From an uncultured Synergistaceae bacterium (GTDB lineage: Bacteria; Synergistota; Synergistia; Synergistales; Aminiphilaceae), in assembly GCA_937868015.1 (NCBI GenBank), contig CALMLW010000030.1, forward strand, positions 1 through 34,256: a DNA stretch of 34,256 bases. Direction: 5' to 3'. Under the pieces are notes generated by a model that worked only from the letters and a program-made list of their open reading frames with translations, was not told the DNA's origin and did no database searches. This document shows positions 1 to 20,220 of this stretch, piece after piece. The translations under genes were made by a program, and so were the position numbers. Position 1 is the stretch's first letter; every line of letters starts with the position of its first letter.

Positions 1-48
1 TCCTTGGCATGGAAGAGGTCGGGGGTTCGATTCCCCCCAGCTCCACCA
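1..48 (+). tRNA. tRNA-Ala (anticodon GGC), 3' part only
   Basis: The 5' half lies outside the window. What remains is the anticodon loop TTGGCAT flanked by TTCC and GGAAG, so the anticodon is GGC (alanine). It is followed by a short variable loop, a perfect T arm (GGGGG, TTCGATT loop, CCCCC at 21-37), the 3' acceptor strand CAGCTCC, discriminator A, and an encoded CCA ending at 48. The identity rests on the anticodon only, because the acceptor 5' strand is not visible. Confidence 0.93.
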
Positions 49-3855: not shown

Positions 3856-3887
3856 AAAAAAACCGGGAGGGGCTTTACCCCCTCCCG
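3856..3887 (-). terminator. Rho-independent terminator of the zinc-ribbon gene
   Basis: On the minus strand a 9-bp GC-rich stem (CGGGAGGGG / CCCCTCCCG, 3887-3864) with a six-base loop is followed by G and seven Ts (3862-3856). It begins 15 bases past the stop codon at 3902. The same hairpin may also stop the plus-strand GH3 transcript, but the T tract is weaker in that direction. Confidence 0.82.
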
Positions 3888-3901: not shown

Positions 3902-4066
3902 CTAACGGACGCTGTAACTCTTGCTTCCCCACTGCTTTCCCTTCAATGGGGCACCCTCCACGAGCTGGACGAATCGACTCAGGCACTTGGGGCATTTGAG
4001 CGCCTGGGGCTTTTGGTCCTCCTCCTGGAATTCGTGCTTGCATTCAAGACACCGGAACGTTCGCAT
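3902..4066 (-). CDS. Small zinc-ribbon protein (54 aa)
   Basis: A 54-residue protein beginning MRTFRCLECKHEF. It has two CxxC knuckles (CLEC at 6-9 and CPKC at about 31-34) typical of FmdB-like or rubredoxin-like zinc ribbons, and a basic, Ser/Lys-rich tail ending YSVR. The ATG at 4066 is preceded by a near-perfect GGAGGTGA ribosome site six bases away, and a terminator follows the stop, so this is a complete single-gene unit. Its role is unknown; such ribbons commonly bind Zn or nucleic acid. It is divergent from the RNase J transcription unit. It is short enough to be missed by length-filtered gene callers. Confidence 0.85.
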   Translation of the reverse strand: MRTFRCLECKHEFQEEDQKPQALKCPKCLSRFVQLVEGAPLKGKQWGSKSYSVR

Positions 4067-4152
4067 GCCATCTCACCTCCTTCGGGAATGGGGCCTTACT
4101 CCCCGCATTATACGGTTTTTTCCCTCCGAACGCCATCCCCGTCGGAGAGCGC

Positions 4153-4181
4153 TTGACCGGAAGTGCGGGGATGGGTAGTAT
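4153..4181 (+). promoter_or_regulatory. Sigma70-type promoter upstream of RNase J
   Basis: TTGACC (4153-4158), a 17-base spacer and TAGTAT (4176-4181) match the sigma70 consensus well. The predicted start near 4188 would give a leader of about 325 nt before the RNase J ATG at 4514. No comparably good promoter was found closer to the gene, although AT-rich GATAAA and TAAAAT boxes occur at about 4438 and 4480. Confidence 0.65.
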
Positions 4182-4189
4182 GGCCCAGA

Positions 4190-4513
4190 GAGGAATGTGG
4201 GTGACCTGGGTCACCGCTGTTGTGGTGTGGCCTTCGAAAAAACTAAGTCATCGGGGAGGCAAAAGGGCTCGGGCCCCTGTTCGAGGCTTCTCCCGTCTCC
4301 GGGGGGGAGAAGCGGGGATTTGATAACTCCCCCAGGCGTAGGCAAAGAGAGCAAAGGGGGCGCCCGGGGTCGCCGGAGCTTTTTGAGGCGCGGCGGGGAC
4401 GGAAGACCCCGGGCCTTGGGGGTCGCAAAAAATAACGGATAAAACCGGGAGTTCTGCCCCGGAGAAAACGGCGGAACGGGATAAAATTCCCTAATGGTTT
4501 CAGAGGAGGATGC
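4190..4513 (+). other. Long structured leader of the RNase J operon, or small RNA region
   Basis: No reading frame in this stretch looks coding. It contains several inverted repeats: the dyad at 4201-4214, a 9-bp stem GCTTCTCCC / GGGAGAAGC (4286-4294 with 4305-4313), and GACCCC / GGGGTC (4405-4410 with 4419-4424) followed by A-rich sequence. No known riboswitch, tmRNA, 6S, SRP or RNase P signature was recognised. The simplest reading is a 5' untranslated leader. Ribonuclease genes are often autoregulated through such leaders. Confidence 0.45.
4201..4214. promoter_or_regulatory. Perfect inverted repeat just after the predicted RNase J start site
   Basis: GTGACC-TG-GGTCAC is a perfect 6-2-6 dyad. 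It lies about 20 bases downstream of the -10 box at 4176-4181, a position where a dimeric repressor would block transcription. No second copy was noticed elsewhere in the window. The binding protein is unknown, and in RNA the same sequence could form a short hairpin. Confidence 0.4.
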
Positions 4514-6238
4514 ATGACTCGATCGAATGCGCGGGCGAGAAGAAGGAAGGCTTCTCAGGCGGGTAGCGGCAAGGATACCTTGCGCTTTTTCGCCCTGGGA
4601 GGTCTGGGGGAAATTGGGAAGAACATGTATGTTTTGGAGTGCGGCGATGACATCGTAGTGGTGGATTCGGGGCTCATGTTCCCCGACGAGGAGATGTTGG
4701 GCATCGACTTCGTCATCCCTGACATCTCCTACTTGGAGGAAAACAAGCACCGTATCCGGGGACTGGTACTCACCCACGGCCACGAGGACCACATTGGGGC
4801 CCTTCCTTTTGTCCTGCCCAAGTTGGATGTGCCCCTTTACGGCACCTGTCTGACGCTGGGCATGGCGCAGGGGAAGCTCGCCGAAGTGGCGCCGGCGTAT
4901 CGAGCGAAGCTGAACGAGGTGAAAGCGGGCGACGTGGTGGAGCTGGGGGCCTTTTCGGTGCGATTCATCGCCGTGTGTCATTCCATCCCCGACGGCGTGG
5001 CGCTGGCCATCCGCACCCCCTTGGGGACGGTGGTGCATACGGGGGACTTCAAGTTCGATGCCACCCCCATCGATGACCGTCCGACGGACTATAGCGCCTT
5101 TGCGGAGCTGGGGCGGGAGGGAGTGCTTCTGCTCCTTTCCGATTCCACCAACGTGGAGCGAGGGGGTTTCACGCCGTCGGAGCGCATGGTGGGGCGCACC
5201 CTGGAGCAGATCTTCCGATTGCACCGATCCAAGCGCATCATCATGGCGGCCTTTGCCAGCAATCTTCACCGGGTGCAGCAGATGTGCGACGTGTCTGCCA
5301 TGTTCAACCGTAAGGTGGTGCTCATGGGGCGGAGCATGGTGAATAACGTAGAGCTCGCCCGGCGTCTGGGGTACATCAAGGCCGACGACGACCTCTTCCT
5401 GCCCCAGCACGAGGCGGATTCTTTTCCGGCGAATCGGACGGCGGTGCTCACCACGGGGAGCCAGGGAGAGCCCTTCTCGGGGCTGGTGCTCATGAGCAAG
5501 GGAGAGCATCGCTTCCTGAACCTGGGATCCAAGGACCTGGTGGTCATCAACGCCACGCCCATCCCGGGCAACGAGAAGCTCGTGAGCCGTACTATAAACC
5601 GGCTTTTCGTCTGCGGATGCGAGGTCCTTTACGAGCAGGACCGCCAGTTGCACGTCTCGGGGCACGCCTCCCGAGAAGAGCTGAAGATGATGCTGAGCCT
5701 GGTCAAGCCCCAGTACTTCGTGCCCGTCCACGGGGAGTACCGCATGTTGGTGCGACACGCCCAGCTCGCCGAAGAGGTGGGTGTGAACGGCAAAAACGTC
5801 TTTGTGCTCCAAAGCGGCGACGTGCTGGAGATCACCCGGGATAAGGCCCAGGCCAAGGGGACCGTTCCCGCCGGAGGCATCTTGGTGGACGGCATGGCCT
5901 TGGGAGAGGTGGAAGGAAGCCTTCTCAGGGAGAGGCGAGAGCTCTCCGAAGAAGGAGTGGTGGTGGTGTCTCTGGTGGTGGACCGGAAATTTCGCCTCCG
6001 AGGGAAGCCCTTGGTGGAAAGCCGGGGGGCGGTGCACGTGAAAGAATCGGCCACCCTGACCAAGGAAATGGGAGACGCCGTGGTCCAGGTGGTGGAGGGG
6101 GTCTCCCGCCGTCGAGACCGGTCGGAAAAGGAGCTGGCGGAGGCGGTGGGTTCCCGGGTGCGTTCGGTGCTTCGGGGATACTCCCGGAGCTCTCCCACCA
6201 TCCTTCCGATGGTAACCATAGTGGAGGAAGGGGCGTAG
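4514..6238 (+). CDS. rnj: Ribonuclease J
   Basis: A 574-residue metallo-beta-lactamase/beta-CASP ribonuclease with endo- and 5'-3' exonuclease activity in mRNA decay and rRNA maturation. A basic N-terminal tail (MTRSNARARRRKAS) precedes the fold. The zinc motif THGHEDH is at 87-93. Further metal and catalytic residues lie in HSIPDG, HTGDFKFD and SDSTNVERGG. The beta-CASP region includes MAAFASNLHRVQQ, GRSM, TTGSQGEP and ATPIPGNE, then HVSGHAS and the metal-binding VHGEYRML. A C-terminal domain follows LEITRDKA. The length is normal for the family. The ATG has GAGGAGG six bases upstream. The gene heads a run of fifteen co-directional genes; uppP begins five bases after its stop. Confidence 0.97.
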   Translation: MTRSNARARRRKASQAGSGKDTLRFFALGGLGEIGKNMYVLECGDDIVVVDSGLMFPDEEMLGIDFVIPDISYLEENKHRIRGLVLTHGHEDHIGALPFVLPKLDVPLYGTCLTLGMAQGKLAEVAPAYRAKLNEVKAGDVVELGAFSVRFIAVCHSIPDGVALAIRTPLGTVVHTGDFKFDATPIDDRPTDYSAFAELGREGVLLLLSDSTNVERGGFTPSERMVGRTLEQIFRLHRSKRIIMAAFASNLHRVQQMCDVSAMFNRKVVLMGRSMVNNVELARRLGYIKADDDLFLPQHEADSFPANRTAVLTTGSQGEPFSGLVLMSKGEHRFLNLGSKDLVVINATPIPGNEKLVSRTINRLFVCGCEVLYEQDRQLHVSGHASREELKMMLSLVKPQYFVPVHGEYRMLVRHAQLAEEVGVNGKNVFVLQSGDVLEITRDKAQAKGTVPAGGILVDGMALGEVEGSLLRERRELSEEGVVVVSLVVDRKFRLRGKPLVESRGAVHVKESATLTKEMGDAVVQVVEGVSRRRDRSEKELAEAVGSRVRSVLRGYSRSSPTILPMVTIVEEGA

Positions 6239-6243
6239 GCGGC

Positions 6244-7053
6244 GTGTTCGGTGATAGCCTCGTGTTGGGTTTTGTCCAGGGGCTCACGGAGTTCCTCCCG
6301 GTGAGCAGCTCCGCTCACCTGGTGATCATGCAGAGGATCCTGGGGTGGCGTGAGCCCGCCCTGGCCTTCGACCTGATGCTCCACGTGGCCACCATGATGG
6401 CCACGCTGATCTTTTTCCGAAACGACGTGGGGCGCCTGGGGATGGAGTGGCTAGCGGGCTTTCGGGGGAGCGAGGGGCGAAAGCCCGGGTGGCGCTACGG
6501 ATGGGCGGTCATCGCCGCCACCATGGCCACCGCCCTGGTGGGATTGCCCCTAAAACCGCTGGTGGAGAAGGCGTTAAGTTCCACGATGGTCGTGGGCCTG
6601 GGGTTGATCCTCACGGCGGCCCTCCTGGAGGGCGCCATGAGGGCTTCCGAGGGGCGCCGTCGTCTGGGGCTGGGCCATGCCTTCCTGGTGGGATTGGCCC
6701 AGGGAGTGGCGACCTTTCCGGGAATTTCCCGGTCGGGGAGCACCATCGCGGCGAGCGTGTTTTTGGGGATTCCCCGGGAAGAGGCCTTTAGGTTTTCCTT
6801 TCTCCTTTCTCTCCCGGCCATCCTGGGGGCCACGGTTTTAGAGGGTCGCGACCTGGGGGGATGGGGAGCCTTCGGGGCGTCCCTCCCTTCGGGGTGGTGG
6901 GCGGGCATGGCGGTGGCCCTTGTCACGGGGCTCATGGCCCTGGCGGTGCTCCGTCGCCTGGTGATCCAGGGACGCTGGCGGGGCTTTGCGGTCTACTGCG
7001 CCCTTTTGGGAGGGAGTACCGTGGTCTTTTCCCTCCTGTTTCCCGGGGTGTGA
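6244..7053 (+). CDS. uppP: Undecaprenyl-diphosphatase UppP (BacA)
   Basis: A 269-residue polytopic membrane enzyme that converts undecaprenyl diphosphate to the monophosphate. This recycles the lipid carrier for peptidoglycan and wall polymers and can confer bacitracin tolerance. Both family motifs are intact: QGLTEFLPVSSSAH (12-25, with Glu16) and PGISRSGST (159-167, with Arg163). About seven to eight hydrophobic segments follow the expected pattern. It starts with GTG five bases after the RNase J stop, so translation is probably coupled. The GTG is preferred because MFGDSLVLGFVQGLTE matches the usual N terminus. Confidence 0.96.
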   Translation: MFGDSLVLGFVQGLTEFLPVSSSAHLVIMQRILGWREPALAFDLMLHVATMMATLIFFRNDVGRLGMEWLAGFRGSEGRKPGWRYGWAVIAATMATALVGLPLKPLVEKALSSTMVVGLGLILTAALLEGAMRASEGRRRLGLGHAFLVGLAQGVATFPGISRSGSTIAASVFLGIPREEAFRFSFLLSLPAILGATVLEGRDLGGWGAFGASLPSGWWAGMAVALVTGLMALAVLRRLVIQGRWRGFAVYCALLGGSTVVFSLLFPGV

Positions 7054-20145: not shown

Positions 20146-20220
20146 TGGTGGGCGACACAGGGTTCGAACCTGTGACCTCTTCCGTGTGAGGGAAGCGTTC
20201 TTCCGCTGAACTAGTCGCCC
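20146..20220 (-). tRNA. tRNA-Val (anticodon CAC)
   Basis: A complete 75-nt cloverleaf. Acceptor GGGCGAC pairs with GTCGCCC, followed by discriminator A and an encoded CCA (20148-20146). The D arm contains TAGTTCAGCGGAAGAACG. The anticodon stem CTTCC/GGAAG encloses CTCACAC, giving anticodon CAC, which reads GTG. The T arm is CACAG-GTTCGAA-CCTGTG-like. It is a single-gene unit with its own promoter and terminator. Confidence 0.97.

What the first reader, a model, noticed from the sequence alone, without database searches (positions are those of the whole stretch)
4190..4513. Long, hairpin-rich leader before RNase J with a palindrome at the start site
A good promoter (TTGACC-N17-TAGTAT) lies about 325 nt upstream of the RNase J ATG. 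The transcribed gap has no gene but several stems and a perfect GTGACC-TG-GGTCAC dyad about 20 nt past the -10 box. This could be an autoregulatory leader cut by RNase J itself, a separate small RNA, or a repressor site controlling the whole downstream run.
Basis: partly seen in the sequence, partly recalled or inferred. Interest (0 to 1): 0.5.

Follow-up and report, generated by a model that had tools for sequence, protein, structure and literature searches.

The report
Long leader before RNase J gene
In one family of the bacterial phylum Synergistota, the gene for the RNA-degrading enzyme RNase J is preceded by an unusually long untranslated stretch that begins with a palindrome shared with a sister genus, and this may help the cell set how much of the enzyme it makes, though that is not proven.

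Summary
The features are real: a TTGACC-17-TAGTAT promoter at 4153-4181, a perfect 7-2-7 dyad at 4200-4215, and about 326 non-coding nt before the RNase J ATG at 4514. On folding energy or palindrome statistics alone the leader is unremarkable; comparison lifts it above chance. Two species of a sister genus carry the same dyad at the start of their RNase J leader, as the only copy in each genome; none of 54 examined genomes of other families has it upstream of RNase J. All four held genomes of this family have promoter-like sites 117-332 nt before RNase J, while 13 of those 54 have an extended -10 only 20-27 nt before it. The third genus lacks the dyad but has an unrelated strong hairpin in the same place. 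No regulon of such dyads was found, so a general repressor is unlikely; no forward terminator and no coding signal speak against a separate sRNA or peptide. Most likely it is a cis-acting RNA leader tuning RNase J synthesis, plausibly by feedback on mRNA decay (0.4). Against: structure is not conserved beyond the sister genus, the dyad hairpin has a strong competing fold in this species, a weak proximal -10 exists, and autoregulation is untested.

The parts
4153..4181 (+). Predicted sigma-70 promoter TTGACC-17-TAGTAT; start of transcription assumed near 4188
   Evidence: 9 of 12 matches, 0.5 expected; top site in G000; G002 has TTGACC-17-TACTAT, G001 and G003 an extended TG-TACAAT
4200..4215 (+). 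Perfect dyad GGTGACC-TG-GGTCACC near the predicted 5' end
   Evidence: single copy and conserved in G001 and G003; pairing probability 0.985 at 33 nt, 0.02-0.08 at 45-60 nt, 0.96 in the whole leader
4224..4232 (+). GGTGTGGCC, shared with G001 and G003 as GGTGTG-K-CC, which in this species can pair with the right arm of the dyad
   Evidence: invariant columns; 45-nt fold
4341..4375 (+). Diverged direct repeat of 4182-4216 (26 of 35 identical), carrying an imperfect copy of the dyad (6 of 7 pairs)
   Evidence: (0 of 300 shuffles, 0 of 89 other stretches as good)
4286..4313 (+). Stem-loop GCTTCTCCC ... GGGAGAAGC
   Evidence: in the fold
4188..4513 (+). Non-coding leader of the RNase J message (predicted extent)
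   Evidence: non-coding by 7-nt and 1-nt indels between G001 and G003
4483..4488 (+). Alternative proximal -10 TAAAAT, 26 nt before the start codon, without a good -35 or TG (approximate place, read from the sequence)
   Evidence: score 8 against 9 for the distal site
4514..6238 (+). RNase J gene (574 aa)
6244..7053 (+). UppP/BacA-family gene 5 nt downstream, probably co-transcribed

Best explanation
The stretch is the long non-coding 5' leader of the RNase J mRNA of a Synergistota family. Transcription starts near 4188 and the dyad is written into the RNA as a hairpin close to the 5' end. Inferred mechanism: the hairpin hinders 5' entry by RNase J; cutting of the long, unprotected leader by an endonuclease (RNase E/G, Y or III, all encoded) opens the message to RNase J, so spare RNase J lowers its own mRNA and that of uppP. 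Shown here by sequence: promoter-like sites, dyad conservation, long leader, non-coding nature, presence of the nuclease genes. Inferred: start site, hairpin in the cell, cleavage, feedback.
For: Dyad once per genome and always at the RNase J leader in G000, G001, G003; absent upstream of RNase J in 54 of 54 examined genomes of other families. Shared 12-mer GGGTGACCTGGG between G000 and G001 leaders, matched in length by 2 of 150 shuffles. 137 nt around promoter and dyad identical between G001 and G003 while 289 of 322 fourfold sites of RNase J are. Strong 5' hairpins: G001 62 nt z -3.64, G002 40 nt z -3.57 with an unrelated sequence. Spacing change of 1 nt suits a loop better than an operator. 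No forward terminator. RNase E/G, Y and III each with one match over cut-off in 4 of 4 genomes. Precedent: RNase Y in B. subtilis (PMC10303841, abstract and passages).
Against: The window's leader folds no better than shuffles, and its first 45 nt prefer another pairing (z -0.36). The G001/G003 model does not find G000 or G002 in the order scan and gives the window dyad only 10.8 bits, fourth of four matches. Arms are identical, not covarying, between G000 and G001, as a protein-binding site would be. Only three independent leaders (three genera) were available. No expression, start-site or cleavage data.
Confidence: 0.4

Rival explanations
1. The long leader is real but has no dedicated regulatory role: the promoter was displaced upstream by drift or internal duplication, and the 5' hairpin is at most a general mRNA stabiliser.
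For: Leader length varies (predicted 326, 249, 255 and 111 nt); most of the sequence is not alignable between genera; folding is ordinary in G000; an internal duplication is visible.
Against: The 5' element is kept between two genera and invariant over 137 nt between G001 and G003.
Confidence: 0.25
2. The dyad is a DNA operator: a dimeric repressor or activator binds just downstream of the start site and controls rnj and uppP.
For: Perfect palindrome with arms identical in two genera; in G000 the RNA hairpin is not the best fold at 45-60 nt.
Against: One copy per genome with 7-bp arms; with 6-bp arms one more in G003, inside a 499-codon open frame. In the order 17 of 180 genomes have the pattern (reversed control 3 of 180); of 18 sites in 14 genomes of other families I looked at 14, one per genome: 9 lie in stop-to-stop frames of 200 codons or more, 3 are cores of terminator-like hairpins, 2 are unresolved. 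Arm spacing differs, and G002 lacks it.
Confidence: 0.17
3. The main start site is proximal (TAAAAT, 26 nt before the ATG), as in several relatives, and most of the gap is not in the message.
For: In 13 of 54 genomes of other families an extended -10 lies 20-27 nt before the start codon; G000 has TAAAAT at 26 nt scoring 8 against 9.
Against: That site has no TG and no good -35; among the top three sites of G001, G002 and G003 none lies within 100 nt of the start codon; it does not explain the conserved distal element.
Confidence: 0.13
4. The leader region encodes a separate small RNA or a short peptide.
For: Promoter, stems, and an open 81-codon frame from GTG at 4197.
Against: No + strand terminator-like site in 4188-4513; no Rfam or Pfam match; 7-nt and 1-nt indels between G001 and G003 would break a frame there.
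Confidence: 0.05

Closest known systems
RNase Y autoregulation in Bacillus subtilis (rny 5' UTR, 164 nt; PMC10303841, abstract and passages seen)
   Same: Long leader of a decay nuclease message; leader cuts there give RNase J1 an entry point. RNase Y and RNase J are both encoded here.
   Different: The regulated nuclease would be RNase J itself; cutting of this leader is untested; control of rny also uses sites in the coding region.
RNase E autoregulation through a stem-loop of the rne 5' UTR in E. coli (passages in PMC3997798)
   Same: Long leader with a hairpin ahead of a nuclease gene.
   Different: No binding or cleavage shown here; no sequence relation tested beyond the Rfam scans, which found nothing in the leader.
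RNase III autoregulation by cutting a stem-loop of its own message (passages in PMC3997798 and PMC4419217)
   Same: Stem-loop in a nuclease message; RNase III is encoded here.
   Different: The window's hairpin is short (6 pairs in the fold), and cutting is untested.
5'-terminal stabilising stem-loops (E. coli 5' stem-loops, B. subtilis aprE leader; titles in the reference list of PMC3997798)
   Same: Hairpin near the predicted 5' end in three genera.
   Different: Overhang of 12 nt in the window's species by prediction; mRNA stability unmeasured.

Membership tests
Ribonuclease mRNA autoregulatory leader (rne/rny/rnc kind) | Long untranslated leader ahead of a ribonuclease gene | tested here: met
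   Predicted 326 nt, by promoter consensus only
Ribonuclease mRNA autoregulatory leader (rne/rny/rnc kind) | RNA structure conserved among relatives | tested here: inconclusive
   Dyad shared by two genera, one compensated pair between G001 and G003, but the model does not carry over to G000 or G002
Ribonuclease mRNA autoregulatory leader (rne/rny/rnc kind) | Message level falls when the nuclease is in excess | not testable with these tools
   Needs expression experiments
Known Rfam riboswitch or leader family | Match over a family's gathering score | tested here: not met
   Gathering scan of the window: two tRNA matches only; permissive scan of 4080-4530: best 13.1 bits against a gathering score of 49.5
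Transcription-factor operator of a regulon | Further copies ahead of other genes | tested here: not met
   no series of promoter sites in the copies looked at (14 of 18 sites outside the family); a single-target factor is not excluded
Stand-alone small RNA | Intrinsic terminator on the + strand within the leader | tested here: not met
   none on the + strand in 4188-4513; one on the - strand at 4462-4445

The most novel reading that the evidence does not exclude
A family-specific RNA leader lets RNase J meter its own 5' exonuclease capacity: a 5' hairpin, replaced by an unrelated one in another genus, guards the message, and leader cleavage opens it. In this species the right arm of the dyad may also switch between two partners, the left arm and the downstream GGTGTGGCC.
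Probability: 0.18. Interest if true: 0.55.

Novelty: new member of a known kind. Interest (0 to 1): 0.33.

Why it matters
Several decay nucleases are known to control their own messages, but the paper searches run here surfaced no such case for RNase J (open-access papers only). A short 5' element present in one bacterial family, and absent upstream of RNase J in the other families examined, would give a compact and testable system for how a 5' exonuclease sets its own level in bacteria that encode RNase E/G, Y, III and J together.

Tried and rejected
Rfam scan of the window and a permissive scan of 4080-4530: nothing credible in the leader. Further copies of the leader in the own genome: besides itself 23 matches of about 15-23 nt with E from 0.43 up. 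Operator regulon: pattern searches in family and order gave no series of promoter sites in the copies looked at. Pattern scan of viral contigs: 20 stretches, about what I would expect by chance in so large a collection (my own rough estimate); contexts not examined. Covariance model R1 from G001/G003: 54 rows in the order scan, of which the two source leaders score about 98 bits; the other 52 go down from E 7.0e-6, include two antisense matches at the same sites, and come from 32 genomes in all. I looked at seven of them (L191-L195, L197, L198): all long GC-rich hairpins, five with A and T runs at the base like two-way terminators; the row for L196 in that call was read at the wrong place, and the other rows were not inspected.

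Rows dropped: of 61 genomes searched with RNase J, G039 had no match, and G028 (partial, contig edge) and G040 (partial match) were left out of the 58 upstream contexts. One search read minus-strand loci in the wrong orientation and is superseded. In one search the G000 fold began too far downstream and is superseded. Alignments A1 to A3 misplace the right arm of the dyad by a gap, so no pair counts were made on them. Structure prediction, the PADLOC and PHROGs libraries, and the plasmid, phage and E. coli collections were not used.

Full report
What is there. The window is the whole of contig C30 of an 83.8%-complete genome. Its order includes G054, whose contig C36 has the same length (40,253) as the named record JAUSOU010000129.1, Thermovirgaceae, a family of Synergistota. 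On the + strand the RNase J gene (4514-6238) is preceded by a 447-nt divergent gap (4067-4513); on the other side a 54-aa zinc-ribbon-like protein reads leftwards (3902-4066; Pfam matches all below cut-off). A TTGACC-17-TAGTAT promoter ends at 4181 and the dyad GGTGACC-TG-GGTCACC lies at 4200-4215. A UppP/BacA-family gene starts 5 nt after the RNase J stop.

Chance. The promoter is one site where 0.5 is expected. The leader folds no better than shuffles (z -1.16, 9 of 100 as good). A palindrome this good occurs somewhere in 179 of 1000 shuffled leaders, but in the first 40 nt of only 10 of 1000. On the single sequence the finding would be marginal.

Comparison within the family. The search set holds four genomes of the family: G000 (the window), G001 and G003 (one sister genus) and G002 (another). 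The pattern GGTGACC-N1-5-GGTCACC occurs once in each of G000, G001 and G003, each time at the start of the RNase J leader, and not in G002; the reversed control gave none in the four. With 6-bp arms one further site appears, in G003 inside a 499-codon open frame. G000 and G001 leaders share the 12-mer GGGTGACCTGGG; 2 of 150 shuffles reach that length. The arms are 2 nt apart in G000 and 3 nt apart in G001 and G003. A second shared string, GGTGTG-K-CC, follows. Between G001 and G003, 137 nt (64 before the -10, 73 from its first base) are identical, while 289 of 322 fourfold sites of RNase J are; beyond the 64 nt the upstream sequences are unrelated. Their leaders differ by 16 substitutions in 251 aligned positions plus one 7-nt and one 1-nt indel, so they are not coding. 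In the consensus fold of those two sequences no substitution breaks a pair: 10 are unpaired, 4 one-sided, and 2 make one compensated pair; but that fold was derived from the same two sequences.

Third genus. G002 has TTGACC-17-TACTAT 117 nt before its start codon, though another site at 235 nt scores the same in that scan. From nt 7 of its predicted RNA it has an unrelated hairpin, UCAAGGGGC...GCCCCUUGA, z -3.57, 2 of 200 shuffles as good. The pairing probability of the 5' stem is 0.999 or more at all lengths tested in G001, G003 and G002, but in G000 it is 0.985 at 33 nt, 0.02-0.08 at 45-60 nt, 0.32 at 80 nt, 0 at 100-200 nt and 0.96 in the whole leader. So the hairpin is firm in the relatives and contested in the window's own species.

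Other families. Upstream contexts of 58 of the 60 genomes with a match were examined, 54 of them outside this family. In 13 of the 54 (families f5, f6, f10) an extended -10 lies 20-27 nt before the start codon and is among the three best sites; the other 41 show no such site in their top three. None of the 54 has the dyad within 450 nt upstream of RNase J. A long leader with this element is thus a feature of this family as far as held, but promoter calls are consensus matches only, and G000 itself has a weak TAAAAT at 26 nt.

Operator or RNA. For an operator: identical arms in two genera, and a contested hairpin in G000. Against: single copy; in the order 17 of 180 genomes have the pattern against 3 of 180 for the reversed control, and of the 14 (of 18) sites outside the family that I looked at, 9 lie in stop-to-stop frames of 200 codons or more, 3 are cores of terminator-like hairpins and 2 are unresolved; changed spacing; replacement in G002 by another hairpin. 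I lean to RNA without excluding DNA.

Leader growth. The 35 nt from 4182 recur at 4341-4375 with 26 of 35 identical; 0 of 300 shuffles and 0 of 89 other 381-nt stretches of the window do as well. In the second copy 6 of 7 arm pairs still pair, one of them through a double change (T-A to C-G), while one is lost (A-T to C/T). This suggests growth by internal duplication, but it was noticed after the fact.

Limits of structure conservation. Model R1 from G001 and G003 finds those two at about 98 bits; in the order scan G000 and G002 have no match at E 1 or better, while other genomes have weaker matches from E 7.0e-6, of which the seven looked at are ordinary long GC-rich hairpins. In the window the model scores 10.8 bits over the dyad, fourth of four matches.

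Mechanism. RNase E/G, RNase Y and RNase III each have one match over the family cut-off in 4 of 4 genomes. Known: B. subtilis RNase Y cuts its own 164-nt leader and RNase J1 then trims to the ribosome (PMC10303841, abstract and passages); rne, pnp and rnc control their own messages in E. coli (PMC3997798, passages); Synechocystis RNase E is suggested to (PMC7283877, passages); cuts are mapped in the messages of RNases Y and III in B. subtilis (PMC11780869, passages). By analogy I propose a guarded 5' end, leader cutting and RNase J entry. Six paper searches ran and passages of nine papers were seen; in these I saw no report of RNase J controlling its own mRNA, which is no proof of absence, since most subscription papers are not held.

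Verdict. A real, family-specific leader with a conserved 5' element; a regulatory role is plausible and unproven.

Noticed in passing
window 4182-4216 and 4341-4375: Direct repeat, 26 of 35 identical, linking the 5' element to a second, imperfect dyad inside the leader.
   Followed up: partly
G000-G003 genomes: RNase E/G, RNase Y, RNase III and RNase J are all encoded in each of the four family genomes.
   Followed up: partly
window 3902-4066 (- strand): Small divergent zinc-ribbon-like protein of 54 aa, below all Pfam cut-offs.
   Followed up: partly
window 3864-3887: Strong hairpin flanked by T runs on both strands, a likely two-way terminator between the glycoside hydrolase family 3 gene and the zinc-ribbon-like gene.
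   Followed up: no
L010 and L011, upstream of RNase J: Sequence identity between the two sister species stops abruptly 64 nt before the -10; what lies upstream is unrelated, a rearrangement or assembly breakpoint.
   Followed up: no
L176, L177, L178: In three genomes of family f4, GGTGACC-N5-GGTCACC is the core of a longer perfect, terminator-like hairpin.
   Followed up: no
window 1-45 and 20146-20220: The window begins inside a tRNA (Rfam only) and holds a tRNA-Val (cac) on the - strand.
   Followed up: no
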